A DNA stretch of 64,000 nucleotides from a virus. The number at the start of each line of letters is the position of its first letter. Within the stretch, counting starts at the first letter, position 1. Below, piece after piece: positions 37,865-51,684 of the stretch. A model generated the notes under the pieces. That model searched no databases and was not told the DNA's origin. It saw only the letters and a list, made by a program, of their open reading frames with translations. The stretch is taken from the IMG/VR virus record IMGVR_UViG_3300007513_000007, positions 1 to 64,000 of that record. One strand, given 5' to 3'. Made by a program: the position numbers and the translations under genes.

Positions 37865-39064
37865 TTAGTAGCTCTCCTCATCCAGAGCGCCACCAGACAG
37901 ATGGGGGTCGATGAGCCGACGGGCGATGAGCCGGTTGTCAGCATCCAGCTTGTGGGTCCAGGCGCGGAAGGCCCGAGCACCGAACTTGGAGGGCATCGAA
38001 TCGTCCCGGCGAAGCATACGCTCTGCACGGGAGAGGACCGAGCACAGGGCACGGTGGCTGAACTCTGCGTAAAGCTCATCCTTGTCGATGGCTTCGCGGA
38101 GAGCGCGAGTAGCGTTACCCACCTGCTCGATGAACTGGGGAGCCTTCTCGGCCAGGGCCGGGAACTTCTCACGGACGATGATGACCTCATCATCCCAGTG
38201 GAGGTAGGCGAACTGAACGGCGCTGTCGAAGCGGTCCAGGATGGAGGCGTCCAGGCAGCCTGCGCTGACCATACGGCCACGGTCATCACCGGAGCCATTG
38301 GTGTTGGCAGTAGCCACGAACTGCGTTCCGGGGAACACGCTCACGACCTCACCCTCGGGTCCGACGATACGGCCCTGCGTGCTGTCCATGAGCAGCCGAA
38401 GCCACTCGACCTGTGCCGGGTCAGCCCGGTCGAGGTCGGTGAGCACCACGATGGCGGGGCGAGCCACACCGTCACGGCCCATGACACCCTTGGTCACGAC
38501 GTTCCAGAGGTGGCCGAAGTCCCAGCCAGTGCCGTCCTTGTCCATCGAACGCTGGTAGAACCAGGGGCCAATGTCACGGTCAGGAACGATGTTGTTCATG
38601 ACGAGGGGCTTGCGAGCCATGCCAGAGAGGGCCAGCAGGAAGCCGTCCTTTCCGGTTCCGGGGAAGCCCCAGATGTAGACGTTGAGGCCATCAAGAATGT
38701 CCATGATGGCATCCTTCATCATTTCGCGGGCCTTACCCTTGGTGGGGAAGCGGTACGCCTCGGGGATCATGGCGCAGGTATCGGGGTCTGCACCAGCATC
38801 CACCTCGACCTTGAAGCCACAGGCATCGAAGGTCAGGTTGTCGATACCGGGGGCTGCGTTCCGACGCATACCCTTGAACTCGGTCTCGACATGGTCGAGG
38901 TAGTCCTGGCTCACCGTGGGAGCCTTGGGGTACGCAGCGACATACTCGTGCAGAGTCATGCCGTGGTCAGCCGCGAGGTGCGGTCCCAGGAAGTGAGACT
39001 TGTGCCCACAGCCGTCTACTTGGCACTCGGGGCGGGGGTCGATGAGCTTGGGGGTCGGGGTCAT
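37865..39064 (-). CDS. CobS/MoxR-type AAA+ ATPase with N-terminal zinc finger
   Basis: 399 aa. The N-terminus (about 12-45) has CQVDGCGHKSHFLGPHL then AADHG, a MucR/Ros-like zinc finger. The AAA+ core has Walker A GFPGTGKDG (about residue 133-141), Walker B-like AIVVLTDLDRADP, sensor 1 FVATANTNGSGDD and an arginine-finger region (LDRFDSAVQFAYL). MoxR/CobS ATPases work with VWA proteins as remodelling chaperones; CobS with CobT inserts cobalt in B12 synthesis. The VWA partners are at 40377 and 41776 on the other strand. Confidence 0.82.
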   Translation of the reverse strand: MTPTPKLIDPRPECQVDGCGHKSHFLGPHLAADHGMTLHEYVAAYPKAPTVSQDYLDHVETEFKGMRRNAAPGIDNLTFDACGFKVEVDAGADPDTCAMIPEAYRFPTKGKAREMMKDAIMDILDGLNVYIWGFPGTGKDGFLLALSGMARKPLVMNNIVPDRDIGPWFYQRSMDKDGTGWDFGHLWNVVTKGVMGRDGVARPAIVVLTDLDRADPAQVEWLRLLMDSTQGRIVGPEGEVVSVFPGTQFVATANTNGSGDDRGRMVSAGCLDASILDRFDSAVQFAYLHWDDEVIIVREKFPALAEKAPQFIEQVGNATRALREAIDKDELYAEFSHRALCSVLSRAERMLRRDDSMPSKFGARAFRAWTHKLDADNRLIARRLIDPHLSGGALDEESY

Positions 39065-41775: not shown

Positions 41776-43185
41776 ATGTCTATGTCCATTCTGCTCAAGC
41801 TCGGTGAAGCCATCTTTGGCACCAACAACGACCTGTCCCTCATCAGCGATGGTGAAGGTGGAGAGGGCACTGATGGTGACGGCGAAGGCGAGGGCGGTGA
41901 GCAGGACGGCCCCGAAGGTGGCGACGAAGGCCAGCCCGGTGACGGTGAGGGCAAGGACGGCGAAGGGAAGGGCAAGGGCCAACCCCAAGCTGGAAATGAG
42001 TTCTCTGGCGAGATTGGCGAAGGTGACACCACCTCTGACACCACAGGCCAGCACACCAACGGCGCTGGCGGGCACTGTGATTCAGGCTCTGCCCGTGACG
42101 ACAGGGCTATTGCCCAAGCACTCCTCGCAGCCATCGAGAACGGCGAACTGTCCGGTCTGGTGGACAACAACGATGCTCTTGGTGACGCCTTGGGTGAACT
42201 CCGGGACAAGGACCAGCCCTGTGAGGATAACGAGAAGCCCTGGAACCCCTATGACCGCTCCTCTGACACCGTAGAGCTTGTGAGAGCGCGTTCTGGTGAC
42301 AAGGAGCACGCTCTGCGCCTTGCCAACTCGGTGAAGAAGGAAGTGGCTGCTATCCGCACACGCCTCCGTTCCAAGTTCCTCCAGAACCGTGGTCGCCGCA
42401 CCATTCATGGTGTTCAGAACGGTCGTGGACTGTCCGAGCGCCGTCTGGTCCAGAGCATGGTCGAGATCACCGCAGGGTCCCGTCCTACTCGCCCTGACTA
42501 CACCAAGGTTCGCAAGCCTGACTGCTCGCTGGCTGTGGCCATCGTCCTCGATGAGTCTGGTTCAATGGGAAGCCACCTCCGGGATGCCTCTCGCGCCATG
42601 ATGGCGATTGCAGAGCCTCTGGATGCAGTGGGCGCTCCGGTCATGGCCATCGGCTTCCGTGATAGCAGCGGTTCGGGACACCACCCCAACCGTGACGAGA
42701 TTTATGCTCCCGACGGCAGCTACAACTTCCATCGCTGGGGAAGCATCCGCATCGACGTGTTCAAGCAGTGGGACGAGAAGTGGCGCAAGGTGATGCCCCG
42801 TATGGCGCGTACACGGGCCACAGGAGGCACTCCGATGTCTGATGGCGTCCAGTATGCCCTCCAGGCCCTCTCCGAGCGTCCAGAGCGCCACAGGGTCATG
42901 CTGGTCATCACTGATGGCTACCCGAATGGAGGCCACGCAGAGGTCATCAAGCGCCAGATCCGTATCGCACGGGAAGCAGGTATCGCTATCGTCGGTATCG
43001 GCATCGACTCGGGCTGCGATGCAGTGTCCCACCACTTCGACCTCTCGGTTCAGTGCCACGACATCTCCCAGCTTCCCAAGAACCTGCTGGACGTGCTGGA
43101 GGAGATCGTCTTCCCCTCCAAGTCCAAGAAGGCTGTCATCGACACCAAGATGAAGCAGTTGAAGGGGCGCAGGAAGAGTGCTTGA
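41776..43185 (+). CDS. CobT-like VWA-domain protein
   Basis: 469 aa from the ATG at 41776 (AAGGAG upstream). Residues about 25-95 are an acidic Gly/Glu/Asp linker, as in CobT. The C-terminal VWA domain has the metal-binding MIDAS: DESGSMGSH (Asp259), a conserved threonine (ATGGTPMSDG) and TDGYPNGG. VWA proteins of this class partner with MoxR/CobS ATPases. The three-gene set (ATPase 37865, HExxH 40377, VWA) is split over both strands around 39.1-40.4 kb, each with its own promoter of the same class. Confidence 0.85.
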   Translation: MSMSILLKLGEAIFGTNNDLSLISDGEGGEGTDGDGEGEGGEQDGPEGGDEGQPGDGEGKDGEGKGKGQPQAGNEFSGEIGEGDTTSDTTGQHTNGAGGHCDSGSARDDRAIAQALLAAIENGELSGLVDNNDALGDALGELRDKDQPCEDNEKPWNPYDRSSDTVELVRARSGDKEHALRLANSVKKEVAAIRTRLRSKFLQNRGRRTIHGVQNGRGLSERRLVQSMVEITAGSRPTRPDYTKVRKPDCSLAVAIVLDESGSMGSHLRDASRAMMAIAEPLDAVGAPVMAIGFRDSSGSGHHPNRDEIYAPDGSYNFHRWGSIRIDVFKQWDEKWRKVMPRMARTRATGGTPMSDGVQYALQALSERPERHRVMLVITDGYPNGGHAEVIKRQIRIAREAGIAIVGIGIDSGCDAVSHHFDLSVQCHDISQLPKNLLDVLEEIVFPSKSKKAVIDTKMKQLKGRRKSA

Positions 43186-43190
43186 AAGAG

Positions 43191-43224
43191 GGGGGTTCCC
43201 GCTCGGAGCCTCTCCCGTATAGAG
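43191..43224 (+). promoter_or_regulatory. Phage-type promoter driving a long non-coding RNA
   Basis: GGGGGTTCC, exactly 17 bases, GTATAGAG. No ribosome site or gene follows for almost 800 bases. Confidence 0.75.
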
Positions 43225-43229
43225 GTCAG

Positions 43230-43908
43230 CACAGCGAGACACCTCGCTGGTAAGTCTCAAGTCCTTGGTCTTTGTTGACCCTGACTGGAAGTGCTGGCTC
43301 ACATGGGACGTTCGAGATCGAAACCATGCAGCGCGGACGGATACGGAGAGAAGACCAGGGCAACCTCTTTGACATTCAAGTAAGTGTTTTGAGTAGCGAT
43401 CCGTATGGTCAGGGGTAAGGAAACGACCCCTCTTGGTGAGTTAGAGTCTCATCCGGTTCAAAGTAACCGAAGGGCGAATCGAGAGCAGCCCGACCCTCTA
43501 TAAGTGCCGCGCAACCCGTGACGAGCGGGGGAGGGTGCGGATTGAAGGTTCCTGTGGCGGTCGCGAACGTCACAGAAGCACCTTGGGGCGGGAGCCTCAA
43601 GGGGAACAGAAGCACGGCCCACTCTGTGGAGGCCATATCCAGGTCAGAAGCAGAGCGTCGTGTTCTACTCAAAACCCTTACTTGAATGCCAAGGAAACGC
43701 ATCACCAATAGAGCCGTTGATCCGCTTGATTGCGAGTAAAGGACCCCGCCAGGGGTCAGACGGTCATGTTCTCGGACGAAGGGTGATGTAGCGAGACAGC
43801 CTGCCGAGATTCAGGTCCTCGCTTCCCTTGGACCTCGGACATATTCTGTCCGGGTTCCATAAAATCGCCCCTCTGGGGGTGTACAAGCCCGATTCTGTGA
43901 TAAGATTT
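43230..43908 (+). ncRNA. Large structured RNA 1 (about 680 nt)
   Basis: No plausible protein is encoded. The predicted 5' end starts with a strong hairpin CAGCGAG/CTCGCTG (43231-43249). A 22-pair long-range helix joins 43373-43396 to 43665-43688, interrupted only by a TG/CC internal loop. Inside and after it are further perfect hairpins: AGGGGT/ACCCCT (43411-43431), CGGTT/AACCG, CTGTG/CACAG, GACCCC/GGGGTC (43742-43757), AGGTCC/GGACCT (43813-43835) and CGGACA/TGTCCG (43836-43852). Size and complexity recall large phage RNAs such as GOLLD and ROOL, but no sequence relation is claimed. It ends before the next promoter at 43918; the 3' end is not certain. Confidence 0.7.
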
Positions 43909-43917
43909 ATTTCGAGA

Positions 43918-43952
43918 GGGGGGTTCCCCACAGTTCCTCCCTCCGTATTGAG
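43918..43952 (+). promoter_or_regulatory. Phage-type promoter for 44014-44820
   Basis: GGGGGGTTCC, exactly 17 bases, GTATTGAG, about 62 bases before the ATG. Confidence 0.75.
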
Positions 43953-44013
43953 ACCATCACCCCATCACCCCAGCGCCTCAACCCATTCCGGGTGCAGGCC
44001 AAAGGAGTTCCGA

Positions 44014-44820
44014 ATGACCATCGACGCCACCAACGCATCTTCCTTCGCCACCGCAGCCGCTCTCGCAGAAGCTCGGAACGGCACCTTCACCGGCCTGATC
44101 ACCACCAAGCGTGGCAAGGTCGTGGGTGGAACCCTCTACGGTGACGACACCGTTCACGCCGTCATCATCACTGGCTTCAGCTACATGGGTCTGGTCGAGC
44201 GTTCGCTCGCCAAGCTCCAGGCCATGTCTGCTGCTGACCTCGCTGCCCTCGTGGCCGACGGTCGGGAAGGCTACGACAGCCGCAAGAAGACTGCGAGCCT
44301 CGTGGCCCTCACTCAGGCTGACTACGTTGCCGCTCGCGATGCCCTCGTGGCTTCCTTCCAGAAGACTCTGGCGGGCACCAACAGCGCCACGACCGATCAC
44401 GTCTATGAGTCCCTTCAGGTTCTCCACGACGACGGCACGGTCGAGAGCGTCCGGGGCGCACGGGTCTACCGCTGCGTGGCTTCCAACCCCAACCACGAGT
44501 GCAAGTGCCGCGACTGCTCCGGTGACAAGCGTGCCCCCGTGGACGGTCAGGTGAACCTCTCTGGCCTGCTCATCGGCTCCAAGGTCATCACTGCTGCTGC
44601 TAACGGCCCCAAGCCTGCTGCCCGGAGTGGCGTGGCGACCGTCGCCAAGAACGCTCTTCGGAGCCGCCTGCCCATCAGCCGCTACGTCAGCTACCGTCTG
44701 GAGCAGGGTGGTTCCTGGATTCTGAACGCAGGTGGCACCGCTGCCGCAGCCGCCACCAACGGTGCGGTGACCTTCAACGAGGACCGTGTGGCTGATGCCC
44801 TCGACCTCCTGGTTGCCTAA
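44014..44820 (+). CDS. Hypothetical protein, probably abundant
   Basis: 268 aa, AAAGGAG upstream. Strong use of GCC/GGC/CTC-type codons and a simple Ala/Thr/Val-rich composition suggest high expression. Two folded halves flank a cysteine cluster (NPNHECKCRDCSGD, about residue 155-170) that may bind zinc. It ends in an alanine-rich helix. No family recognised. Confidence 0.62.
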   Translation: MTIDATNASSFATAAALAEARNGTFTGLITTKRGKVVGGTLYGDDTVHAVIITGFSYMGLVERSLAKLQAMSAADLAALVADGREGYDSRKKTASLVALTQADYVAARDALVASFQKTLAGTNSATTDHVYESLQVLHDDGTVESVRGARVYRCVASNPNHECKCRDCSGDKRAPVDGQVNLSGLLIGSKVITAAANGPKPAARSGVATVAKNALRSRLPISRYVSYRLEQGGSWILNAGGTAAAAATNGAVTFNEDRVADALDLLVA

Positions 44821-45256: not shown

Positions 45257-45478
45257 TTATTCAGAGTCGCTGGAGTCGCGTTTCTTGGTGAGCAGTCCGA
45301 GCGCAGCACGAGCAATCATGACAGTTCCAGCAAGCTGGTGCGCCGCCTCGCCGCTTTGGATGACGCCCTTGGCTTGGTCCCACCACACCGAGAGTTGAGC
45401 ACAAGCTCCAAAGGCACGAGCCACCTTGACAGGGTCATGGCCGCAGGCGGGGCAAGGTCGATGGGATCGGTCAGTCAT
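45257..45478 (-). CDS. Small zinc-motif hypothetical protein
   Basis: 73 aa. PCPACGHD near the N-terminus and a further cysteine at residue 26 may bind zinc; the rest is helical. Upstream on the minus strand there is a GTAGGGAG element but no GGGGGTTCC; instead two copies of a 16-base repeat lie there (45512-45549). Confidence 0.58.
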   Translation of the reverse strand: MTDRSHRPCPACGHDPVKVARAFGACAQLSVWWDQAKGVIQSGEAAHQLAGTVMIARAALGLLTKKRDSSDSE

Positions 45479-45511
45479 TCTCTTCCCTCCTCCCTACGAA
45501 GACAAAAGGCT

Positions 45512-45549
45512 CACCACCGGCAGTGGTCTGCAACACCACCGGCAGTGGT
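45512..45549. repeat. Two direct repeats with internal symmetry
   Basis: CACCACCGGCAGTGGT occurs twice, 22 bases apart. Each copy is itself a dyad (ACCAC...GTGGT). Spacing of two helical turns suggests a cooperative operator between divergent genes. Confidence 0.7.
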
Positions 45550-45590
45550 TTCCTGAAGCAACGCGGGAGTCACACCCACCTGTCCCGAGA

Positions 45591-45640
45591 CGACACGAAG
45601 CGACAAGAGACGACAAGAGACGACAAGAGACGACACGAGG
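45591..45640. repeat. Five tandem 10-base repeats
   Basis: CGACACGAAG, three exact CGACAAGAGA, then CGACACGAGG. Flanked by TGTCCCGAGA and TGTCCCGACG. One helical turn per repeat puts each unit on the same DNA face. Not a CRISPR (no spacers). Confidence 0.75.
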
Positions 45641-45644
45641 TGTC

Positions 45645-45684
45645 CCGACGGGATGGACAAGAACTGGTTTGTCCGTCCCGTCGG
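45645..45684. repeat. Long inverted repeat
   Basis: CCGACGGGA-T-GGACA, ten-base loop, TGTCC-G-TCCCGTCGG. A 14-pair stem with one mismatch, immediately after the tandem repeats. May be a hairpin terminator-like or origin structure. Confidence 0.7.
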
Positions 45685-45827
45685 CAGCCTGAATCAGTTT
45701 CACTGTGCCCATGCAGCCGAGCGTCACACGAGAACTCGCCAGCGATTTTGCTGGCGAACCCCGTTCGGTATGATTTCAACACCAGCTTGATGGCTGCTAC
45801 CCATAATCGCCGTTTTCAGCGTTCTAC

Positions 45828-45856
45828 GAGAGGTGGTTCATATCGAAACACCTCTC
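45828..45856. promoter_or_regulatory. Inverted repeat over the start of 45833-46501
   Basis: GAGAGGTG, 13 bases, CACCTCTC. It spans the proposed GTG start and its purine-rich ribosome site, so it could block translation or bind a repressor. Confidence 0.5.
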
Positions 45857-46501
45857 ACGCAACATGGACAACCCCCCGTGAAACTCCCCGCAAGCAACAC
45901 CCCAAGCAACACGGAGCCAGTAAGCCTCGCGGTGTCCCTACTGAACCAACCCTTCCTTCAGTACGAGAGGAAGCCTGCTACACAGAAAGCTCTCTCTGGA
46001 CCGCCTACGGACCCAACGTGGTGGATTCCATACAGGGACAGGGCACTCCTACATACATGCCTATGGACAGGGTGGGGTATGAACCCTCTCCTCCAGGTAT
46101 CCCTACAGCAAGCAAAGGACGCCCTCGAAGACTCTCCACTTGCTTCAAGCCTCATCCCCGAACCTCTATGGAACGACTGCTGGGAATCTCTCCAGCTATG
46201 GGAACAGGCAGCCAACCTCCTGGTATGCACACCCAAGCATCGCTACTGTGGAAATCACCTGCTATTCATCTCCCGAAAGCACACAGACCTTTCCAGGTAT
46301 CCCGGAGGACGTGTCTCTTGCAGGGAGTCTCTCTGGCGCACCTTCCACCGAATCAGGGAGGGACTCACCATCACGGAGATCCAGGAAGTGAGTGCTTCTC
46401 TCTCTGAAGTGTCTGGTATCAGTCTTCCCTCTCCCCCTCCAAGCAGACCTCGGGTATTCACTCCGCGATCTATGGCCCTGTGGCTCTCCTCGCAGAAGTA
46501 G
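45833..46501 (+). CDS. Hypothetical protein resembling a degenerate tyrosine recombinase
   Basis: 222 aa from a GTG; the start is uncertain. YRDRALLHTCLWTGWGMNP resembles box I of integrases (RDRALL..L..TGLR..EL) with the catalytic arginine missing. Later SLWRTFHRIREGLTITEIQE resembles the box II helix around the second arginine, but the tyrosine region is not recognisable. If related, it would be a catalytically dead DNA-binding derivative. The similarity is weak. Codon use is less regular than in neighbours. Confidence 0.35.
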   Translation: MVHIETPLTQHGQPPVKLPASNTPSNTEPVSLAVSLLNQPFLQYERKPATQKALSGPPTDPTWWIPYRDRALLHTCLWTGWGMNPLLQVSLQQAKDALEDSPLASSLIPEPLWNDCWESLQLWEQAANLLVCTPKHRYCGNHLLFISRKHTDLSRYPGGRVSCRESLWRTFHRIREGLTITEIQEVSASLSEVSGISLPSPPPSRPRVFTPRSMALWLSSQK

Positions 46502-46535
46502 GGGGGTTCTTACTGCTCTCCAAAAACGTAGAGAG
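46501..46535 (+). promoter_or_regulatory. Phage-type promoter for 46560-47251
   Basis: GGGGGGTTCT, exactly 17 bases, GTAGAGAG; starts in the base after the previous stop. Confidence 0.72.
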
Positions 46536-46559
46536 CAAGAAGACAAGGAGTTGATCCCC

Positions 46560-47021
46560 ATGCCCTCTGACCTCTACGACCTCTTTGGAACCAAGACCGA
46601 GGGACCTGCGGGTGCCCCTTACACCAAAGGGTCCATCACCTCTATGGAAGCTGCTGAAGCCATCGCTGACGTTGCTGGTAGGCTACGCAGGCAGGTGTAC
46701 CAGTACATCGTGTCCTGTGGCGCTTCAGGCACTACGGATGATGCTGCTGAAGTAGCCCTCGACATGAAGCACACCACTTACACTGCCCGTAGGGGTGAAC
46801 TGGTCAAGCGGGGACTCGTTGCTGACTCTGGGCACAAGGCAAAGACCCGTTCTGGCCGTAGGGCTACCATCTGGGTTGCCGTGAACCCCAAGAACGCTGC
46901 GAACCTCAAGGAAGTGTCGGACCTCAACAAGATCCGCACCAAGCTGAAGGGCAAGGTCAGCAAGATGTCCGAGGAACAGTGCGAAAAGGTCCTCAACGCC
47001 ATTGAAGGCTGGGGGCTGTAG
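46560..47021 (+). CDS. Winged-helix DNA-binding protein
   Basis: 153 aa from the ATG at 46560 (AAGGAG upstream). Residues about 45-110 form a winged helix: QVYQYIVSCGASGTTDDAAE, then TYTARRGELVKRGLVADSG. This is the common phage HTH type. Basic C-terminus. Probably a regulator. Followed six bases later by 47027-47251. Confidence 0.7.
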   Translation: MPSDLYDLFGTKTEGPAGAPYTKGSITSMEAAEAIADVAGRLRRQVYQYIVSCGASGTTDDAAEVALDMKHTTYTARRGELVKRGLVADSGHKAKTRSGRRATIWVAVNPKNAANLKEVSDLNKIRTKLKGKVSKMSEEQCEKVLNAIEGWGL

Positions 47022-50869: not shown

Positions 50870-50909
50870 CCAAATAAGAGAGGGGGCCACCCTTTCGGAT
50901 GACCCCCTC
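50870..50909 (-). terminator. Terminator of structured RNA 2
   Basis: Minus strand GAGGGGGTCATCC-GAAA-GGGTGGCCCCCTC followed by TCTTATTT. A strong GC-rich stem with a GNRA loop and a T-rich tail. Confidence 0.65.
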
Positions 50910-51644
50910 ATGAGGGAACAAACAAGCACACATGCACTTGCTCCCAGCCGTGACCTCCAAGCCTTTTGAGCCTGTCCCCGTTCGGGTTAGGAGTGTGAAC
51001 ACCAGCAAGTAAAGCTGTTCACGACGTTCCTCCCTGTTCTTCGCAGTCTCCTACGACGGAACAGCACGCGATACTGCTGCCTACATTCTGTGTATCGGAG
51101 GGTAAGCTGTACACTTCTCCCTTCCTCCACACGACAACCTTTGATCTCTTGGGAAGATCGCCACTTGCCCCCTTTCGGGACGGTTGCCAGATTGCTCTGA
51201 CAACCAGAGAGGCTTCTGCATTCAGCAGTCCGATTCTGGGGAACAACCCCCTTCCCAAGACTTTGTTCTTGGTTATTGCCCTGCAACCGTTTCCTCAGTG
51301 AATCAGCAAGTCCGAGGATGCCCTTCGCAGCACTCCGACAGTGGAATGTCGGCTCATGCTCTGGACCACTGGGTGATTCTCGGAGCAACCACGCTCCATA
51401 ACTCACCCCCCTTCATAGTCAGGCGGCAGAGTGTGTGAACACCCCTTTCCTGAACAGGGTTCTGGCTACCTCCCGAAGGAGCCGACGACCCGGCAAGGGT
51501 ACGAAGGTTTTAGGACCCGTCAGCAGGGTCCACTCGCCACCCCTGCAAGCAGGAGCTTTGAGATTCGTTGAAACTGTAAAAGAACTATGCCGCTCTATGG
51601 TGACGGCTACCTGTTTTTTGGCGCTCTGCCAGTCATCAATGACT
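50870..51644 (-). ncRNA. Large structured RNA 2 (about 775 nt)
   Basis: Transcription would start just after 51649, opposite to the plus-strand numbering, and end at the hairpin near 50880. No protein of quality is encoded. Perfect complementary stems in 5' to 3' order include AGTCAT/ATGACT at the 5' end, GGACCC/GGGTCC, CTCC-TTCG-GGAG, a two-part stem GGGTGA/TCACCC enclosing GGAGC/GCTCC, CCGACA/TGTCGG, CCAAGA/TCTTGG, GGTTG-CAGA/TCTG-CAACC, CTGTTC/GAACAG and GTGAAC-AGC/GCT-GTTCAC near the 3' end. Own promoter, own terminator and dense pairing make it a strong non-coding RNA candidate. Confidence 0.72.
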
Positions 51645-51648
51645 TGTA

Positions 51649-51684
51649 ACCTCTACGCGGTCACACTACCAAGGGAACCCCCCC
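51649..51684 (-). promoter_or_regulatory. Phage-type promoter driving structured RNA 2
   Basis: Minus strand GGGGGGTTCC, exactly 17 bases, GTAGAGGT. The -35 half lies in the last codons of 51653-52054 and the GTAG includes its stop codon. Confidence 0.75.

What the first reader, a model, noticed from the sequence alone, without database searches (positions are those of the whole stretch)
43230..43908. Large structured non-coding RNA 1 with a 22-pair long-range helix
An approximately 680-base unit with its own promoter contains no credible gene but many perfect hairpins. 43373-43384 pairs with 43677-43688 and 43387-43396 with 43665-43674 without mismatch, an arrangement very unlikely by chance. 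Known large phage RNAs (GOLLD, ROOL) have this size and complexity. This may be an undescribed class.
Basis: partly seen in the sequence, partly recalled or inferred. Interest (0 to 1): 0.87.

Follow-up and report, generated by a model that had tools for sequence, protein, structure and literature searches.

The report
Orphan large structured phage RNA
Between two genes of an uncultivated large phage lies a roughly 675-base stretch that encodes no protein, has its own copy of the phage's promoter and folds far better than chance as RNA; it looks like a new large non-coding RNA of unknown function, but no relative was found, so its structure has not been confirmed by evolution.

Summary
The 22 pairs named (43373-43384/43677-43688 and 43387-43396/43665-43674) exist and extend to 29 pairs over 31 positions. 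The unit has no credible gene and has a consensus copy of a phage-specific promoter (GGGGTTCC, then CCGTA 23 nt later, about 27 copies in this 180-kb phage record). The next gene has its own copy. As + strand RNA it folds at z = -5.2 (0 of 160 shuffles), and two windows over it are the best-folding of 746 in the 64 kb. The opposite strand reaches only z = -2.0, which favours an RNA over a DNA-level repeat. Rfam, including GOLLD, ROOL, OLE, HEARO and introns, gives nothing. Homologues with covariation, which would make it a class, were not found: 26 related phage records, INPHARED phages, PLSDB plasmids and four exact-pattern IMG/VR scans gave none. In one relative the flanking genes adjoin without it. 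A second, unrelated RNA in the same window (about 51655 to 50875, minus), from the same promoter type, has an 82%-identical orthologue with 27 compensated pairs and none broken, so this lineage does use large ornate RNAs. Most likely RNA 1 is a genuine orphan large non-coding RNA. Function is inferred only.

The parts
43189..43225 (+). Phage-type promoter of RNA 1: GGGGGGTTCCC, then CCGTATAGAG (CCGTA starts 23 nt after GGGGTTCC)
   Evidence: Same two boxes at the same 23-nt spacing at about 27 sites in the phage, mostly directly upstream of RBS+ATG; the reversed control pattern gives 0 in 26 relatives
43227..43902 (+). RNA 1, predicted transcript; start inferred from the promoter, end uncertain (about 43860-43915)
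   Evidence: No coding signal; MFE -281.7 kcal/mol, z -5.2, 0 of 160 shuffles; minus strand z -2.0; best-folding windows of the 64 kb
43229..43251 (+). 5' hairpin CAGCGAG-ACAC-CTCGCTG
   Evidence: Fold of 43227-43905, mean pair probability 0.64, or 0.95 with the downstream flank included
43266..43357 (+). 5' domain (stacked helices 43266-43276/43348-43357, 43291-43296/43329-43334, 43302-43306/43324-43328)
   Evidence: Pair probabilities 0.80 to 0.99 within the unit; this domain refolds with the leader of the next gene if transcription reads through
43366..43396 (+). 5' arm of the long-range helix
   Evidence: Inverted repeat 31 nt, 90% complementary; pair probability 0.99; not reached in 300 shuffles
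43397..43544 (+). Central domain A: multibranch junction closed by CGATCCGT/GCGGATTG with hairpins at 43411, 43435, 43454, 43472 and 43493, including a GAAA tetraloop (43420-43423)
   Evidence: Pair probabilities mostly 0.95 to 1.00; loops listed
43548..43664 (+). Central domain B: hairpins 43548-43579, 43581-43602 (GGGA tetraloop) and 43611-43664
   Evidence: Pair probabilities 0.85 to 1.00
43665..43695 (+). 3' arm of the long-range helix
   Evidence: See the 5' arm
43699..43859 (+). 3' domain: helices 43699-43706/43782-43789, 43742-43757, 43790-43823 and 43829-43859
   Evidence: Pair probabilities 0.91 to 0.99 for these helices; inner pairs of the first are uncertain
43917..43953 (+). Separate promoter of the downstream gene, marking where RNA 1's own unit should end
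   Evidence: Same consensus and spacing
41776..43185 (+). Upstream gene, VWA/CobT-like protein
   Evidence: Pfam VWA and CobT_C, PHROG 1576, searched with the longer frame from 41716; ATG near 41776 lies after a promoter copy and RBS
44014..44820 (+). Downstream gene, unknown function; homologues in three relatives
   Evidence: in G005 it lies about 300 nt from the VWA gene with no RNA between
50875..51655 (-). Companion RNA 2, unrelated in sequence, same promoter type (51681), ends in a terminator-like hairpin
   Evidence: 82% identical orthologue in G003; 27 compensated pairs, none broken, slid controls 0-3

Best explanation
RNA 1 is a free-standing large structured non-coding RNA of a large phage. 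It is transcribed on the + strand from a phage-specific promoter at 43189-43225, starting near 43227 and ending near 43900. It folds into a 5' domain, a central multi-helix region closed by a 29-pair helix, and a 3' domain. The shared promoter suggests that it is made at the same stage of infection as the neighbouring AAA+/VWA-type genes. It most likely works as a stable structural RNA, alone, as an oligomer or with a protein, as GOLLD and ROOL are thought to, with the long helix acting as a rigid strut or as an RNase III processing stem. Shown here: sequence, promoter motif, lack of coding, exceptional strand-specific predicted fold, absence next to the same gene in two relatives. Inferred: transcription, ends, stability, structural role. 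The confidence given is for 'a genuine free-standing structured RNA'; the specific structural role is less certain.
For: Promoter copy at exact 23-nt spacing, one of about 27 in the genome, most of which precede genes. Non-coding by codon model and family searches. z -5.2 on + against -2.0 on -; rank 1 and 2 of 746 windows. Long-range arm never matched in 300 shuffles. Helices of the central and 3' domains largely at probability 0.9 or more. The same phage has a second large RNA from the same promoter type with strong covariation. Precedent: in phage ICP1 the most abundant transcript is an approximately 800-nt orf-less RNA not near tRNAs (PMC7567579).
Against: No homologue, so no covariation. 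The related phages G003 and G005 lack it next to the VWA gene, so it is not a core feature. No intrinsic terminator. No expression data. Structural role rests on analogy.
Confidence: 0.7

Rival explanations
1. RNA 1 is a long cis-acting leader of the 44014-44820 gene: its transcript reads through, and the 5' domain can pair with that gene's leader and Shine-Dalgarno region, giving an on/off switch.
For: No terminator before the gene. If folded through to 44016, 43259-43271 pairs with 43996-44009, which holds AAAGGAG, and 43340-43356 with 43933-43949.
Against: The gene has its own consensus promoter at 43917-43953. A duplex search of RNA 1 against 21 phage leaders shows nothing special for this one (z -0.9). 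The gene's homologue in G005 has no such leader.
Confidence: 0.14
2. The inverted repeats act at DNA level (replication or packaging site, or a small mobile element with 31-bp terminal inverted repeats inserted between two genes).
For: 31-nt inverted repeat 268 nt apart; G005 has the two flanking genes about 300 nt apart without this unit.
Against: Folding is much stronger on + than on -, expected for RNA with G-U pairs and not for a DNA palindrome. The arms occur nowhere else in the 180-kb record. The unit extends well beyond the repeat and carries a promoter.
Confidence: 0.06
3. It is a very divergent member of a known class such as GOLLD or ROOL.
For: Size of about 675 nt, phage location and many hairpins fit.
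Against: No Rfam match at E up to 10 with permissive filters; not near tRNAs: the only tRNA found lies at 78323-78400 of the record.
Confidence: 0.05
4. It is a decayed or unusual protein gene, or several small ORFs.
For: A 99-aa frame is open on the minus strand at 43409-43708.
Against: Negative coding score, no Pfam or PHROGs match, no + strand ORF of 30 aa or more within the unit has an RBS-like sequence.
Confidence: 0.03

Closest known systems
ROOL RNA (Rfam)
   Same: Phage-encoded, about 660 nt in the solved example, complex fold, no known protein partner, function unknown (PMC12286853)
   Different: No covariance-model match; not near tRNAs; no homologues found
GOLLD RNA (Rfam)
   Same: Phage-encoded, several hundred nt, ornate; expression rises during lysis in one case (PMC12286853)
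   Different: No covariance-model match; no tRNA nearby
ICP1 approximately 800-nt orf-less RNA
   Same: Large non-coding phage transcript in an orf-less gap, not near tRNAs (PMC7567579)
   Different: No match in the phage-record blastn (whether ICP1 is in that collection was not checked); structure not compared
RNA 2 of the same phage (51655-50875, minus)
   Same: Same promoter type, similar size, noncoding, exceptional fold
   Different: No sequence similarity beyond chance; different predicted architecture; conserved in G003 with covariation; has a terminator-like hairpin
OLE and HEARO RNAs
   Same: Large structured bacterial RNAs
   Different: No covariance-model match; no dedicated search for their protein partners was made

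Membership tests
GOLLD | Matches the Rfam covariance model | tested here: not met
   No match for the window at gathering score, nor for 43000-44100 at E up to 10
GOLLD | Often near tRNA islands in phages or prophages | tested here: not met
   No tRNA in the window, one tRNA-Asn at 78323-78400 of the record
GOLLD | Homo-oligomeric RNA cage | not testable with these tools
   Needs mass photometry or cryo-EM
ROOL | Matches the Rfam covariance model | tested here: not met
ROOL | Often near tRNA islands | tested here: not met
ROOL | Multimeric nanocage with conserved inter-subunit contacts | not testable with these tools
   Needs structure determination; no homologues for covariation
OLE | Matches the Rfam covariance model | tested here: not met
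HEARO | Matches the Rfam covariance model | tested here: not met
Group I or group II intron | Matches the Rfam models and interrupts a gene | tested here: not met
   No Rfam match; lies between two complete genes
New class of structured RNA | Free-standing unit with its own promoter | tested here: met
   Promoter motif at sequence level; transcription not shown and 3' end undefined
New class of structured RNA | Homologues with compensatory changes | tested here: inconclusive
   No homologue found; no metagenome scan was available
New class of structured RNA | Fold better than shuffled sequence | tested here: met
   z -5.2, 0 of 160; rank 1 and 2 of 746 windows
Antisense regulator of phage mRNAs | Strong complementarity to phage leaders | tested here: not met
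   Best of 21 leaders z -3.3 with 1 of 60 shuffles as good, the rest -1.9 or weaker; not significant after 21 tests

The most novel reading that the evidence does not exclude
RNA 1 is the first known member of an undescribed class of large ornate phage RNA that acts as a structural particle, in a phage lineage that carries at least two mutually unrelated large RNAs under one phage-specific promoter class.
Probability: 0.35. Interest if true: 0.82.

Novelty: new variant of a known kind. Interest (0 to 1): 0.6.

Why it matters
Only a few large ornate RNAs are known in phages, and their function is an open question. A phage with two unrelated ones under one promoter class, one of them supported by covariation, suggests that such RNAs are more diverse than Rfam records. 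It also gives defined transcripts on which assembly, partners and timing can be tested.

Tried and rejected
Rfam at gathering and permissive thresholds: nothing relevant; the MIMT1_1 hit at E 7 is chance. blastn against INPHARED phages and PLSDB plasmids: no match. DNA search of 26 related phage records: only hits of 12 to 39 nt; of those inspected, the ones to the RNA body look coding and the G001 hit is a promoter copy. Exact-pattern scans of IMG/VR for RNA 1: one hit in L083, in what reads as a recombinase gene, and one 20-nt hit in L098 (context not examined); both taken as chance. GTDB pattern scan for RNA 1 and for RNA 2: none. nhmmer and sensitive blastn against G003: none. Single-sequence covariance models of two RNA 1 domains against 27 records: only itself; one hit at E 0.5 ignored. 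Common ancestry of RNA 1 and RNA 2: shared 8-mers equal chance and are not collinear. Antisense action on phage leaders: not significant. Coding: rejected. The minus-strand z of -4.0 from 20 shuffles was not reproduced with 160 shuffles (z -2.0).

Full report
Setting. The window is bases 1-64000 of a 180,576-base virus record. It encodes a terminase, a portal protein, a RecD2-like helicase and a ribonucleotide reductase, so it is a large phage. Relatives found by terminase are IMG/VR records of up to 316 kb. The finding lies between a VWA/CobT-like gene ending at 43185 and a gene of unknown function, 44014-44820.

Observation. They are the core of a 31-nt inverted repeat, 43366-43396 / 43665-43695, 90% complementary, that folds as 29 pairs with probability 0.99. 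Among 300 dinucleotide shuffles of the unit the best long-range arm scores 14; the real one scores 22.

Own promoter. A two-box motif, GGGGTTCC followed by CCGTA with starts 23 nt apart, occurs at about 27 places in the record on both strands, in most cases just before an RBS and start codon. RNA 1 has a copy at 43189-43225 and the downstream gene has its own at 43917-43953. The relative G003 uses a variant of the same motif, GGGGTTCAA then CCGTAT at nearly the same spacing, in front of its genes. The reversed control pattern is absent from all 26 relatives. So the transcription unit is well supported by sequence, though no RNA has been seen.

Not coding. A codon model trained on the phage's long genes gives each ORF within the unit about zero or less per codon, against about 0.15-0.36 for most long real genes. 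The six longest tested match nothing in Pfam or PHROGs at E up to 1.

Fold. The + strand of 43228-43902 folds at -281.7 kcal/mol; 160 dinucleotide shuffles average -240.9 (sd 7.9), z = -5.2, none as good. The minus strand gives z = -2.0 with 3 of 160 as good. In a scan of 746 windows of 680 nt over the 64 kb, corrected for dinucleotide content, the two + strand windows over RNA 1 rank first and second. The strand asymmetry argues for selection on RNA rather than on a DNA palindrome. Helices within the central and 3' domains mostly have pair probabilities above 0.9. The outermost pairing is not stable to the choice of 3' end: if the transcript runs on to 44016, the 5' domain pairs with the leader and Shine-Dalgarno region of the next gene. 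This is the basis of the leader rival.

Homologues. None was found in 26 related records by DNA or by covariance models of two domains, in G003 by sensitive methods, in INPHARED, in PLSDB, or by exact patterns in IMG/VR and GTDB. Many of these records are partial, and the phages closest by terminase after the near-identical one (75%) are held only as short contigs, so absence is not proof. In G005 the VWA gene and the 44014 homologue lie about 300 nt apart with no such RNA, and in G003 another gene follows the VWA gene directly. RNA 1 was therefore gained at this site in this lineage, or lost in the others.

A companion RNA. Of the promoter copies that no start codon follows closely, one at 51681 (minus) precedes a noncoding unit of about 780 nt (RNA 2), fourth-ranked in the fold scan, z = -4.2 from 20 shuffles, ending in a G+C-rich hairpin followed by UCUUAUUU. 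It has an 82%-identical orthologue in G003, where the terminase is 66% identical as protein. The consensus fold has 203 pairs, 27 with changes on both sides and none broken; shifting partners by 1-3 columns leaves 0-3 such pairs. The structure was derived from these two sequences, which favours it, and independent folds of the two share only 87 pairs of 227 and 241, but the number of compensated pairs is still far above the controls. RNA 2 shows that this lineage does maintain large structured RNAs. It is not similar to RNA 1.

Known systems. No Rfam family matches RNA 1 meaningfully even at E up to 10, which tests GOLLD, ROOL, OLE, HEARO and introns. GOLLD and ROOL often lie near tRNA islands (PMC12286853); here there is none. 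In phage ICP1 the most abundant transcript is an orf-less RNA of about 800 nt not near tRNAs, of unknown role (PMC7567579), a good precedent for the reading proposed here.

How it most likely works. Transcription starts near 43227 from the phage promoter. The RNA folds into three domains around a 29-pair helix and accumulates as a stable structural RNA, possibly an oligomer or RNP. Only the sequence features are shown; transcript, ends, stability and role are inferred. Rivals kept open: leader of the next gene (0.14), DNA element (0.06), divergent known class (0.05), coding (0.03).

Verdict. It is a strong candidate large phage RNA, an orphan so far, and not shown to be a class.

Noticed in passing
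window 50875-51655 (minus): Second large structured non-coding RNA with the same promoter type, a terminator-like hairpin and an 82%-identical orthologue in G003 with 27 compensated pairs. It is better supported than RNA 1 and deserves its own study.
   Followed up: partly
about 27 sites in the record, e.g. window 39809, 40321, 41727, 43192, 43920, 51681: Phage-specific two-box promoter GGGGTTCC...CCGTA at fixed 23-nt spacing; G003 has the variant GGGGTTCAA...CCGTAT. The sigma factor or polymerase that reads it was not sought.
   Followed up: partly
L069:790-1003 (minus), record 84790-85003: Promoter-driven, apparently noncoding unit of about 200 nt ending in a strong hairpin (GAAGCCCCCTC-like arms) with a T-containing tail; no Rfam match in the region at E up to 1.
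   Followed up: partly
L069:1800-2024 (minus), record near 86024: Another promoter copy followed by apparently noncoding sequence with two tandem hairpins CTCCCACCAAACGGGAGAG.
   Followed up: partly
window 37865-39064 (minus) and 41776-43185 (+): CobS-like (PHROG 249, annotated porphyrin biosynthesis) and CobT/VWA-like genes in one cluster; the annotation as cobalamin or porphyrin synthesis is doubtful in a phage, an AAA+/VWA pair is more likely.
   Followed up: no
L081 and other G003 stretches; window 43970-44013: Many G003 leaders carry a small hairpin just before the RBS (e.g. CCTCATCGAGAGG, CCCGACTGACGGG); similar hairpins precede some window genes.
   Followed up: no
window 45376-46575: About 1.2 kb of low coding signal with tandem GACGACAAGA-type repeats near 45590-45640, without a strong fold on the + strand.
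   Followed up: no
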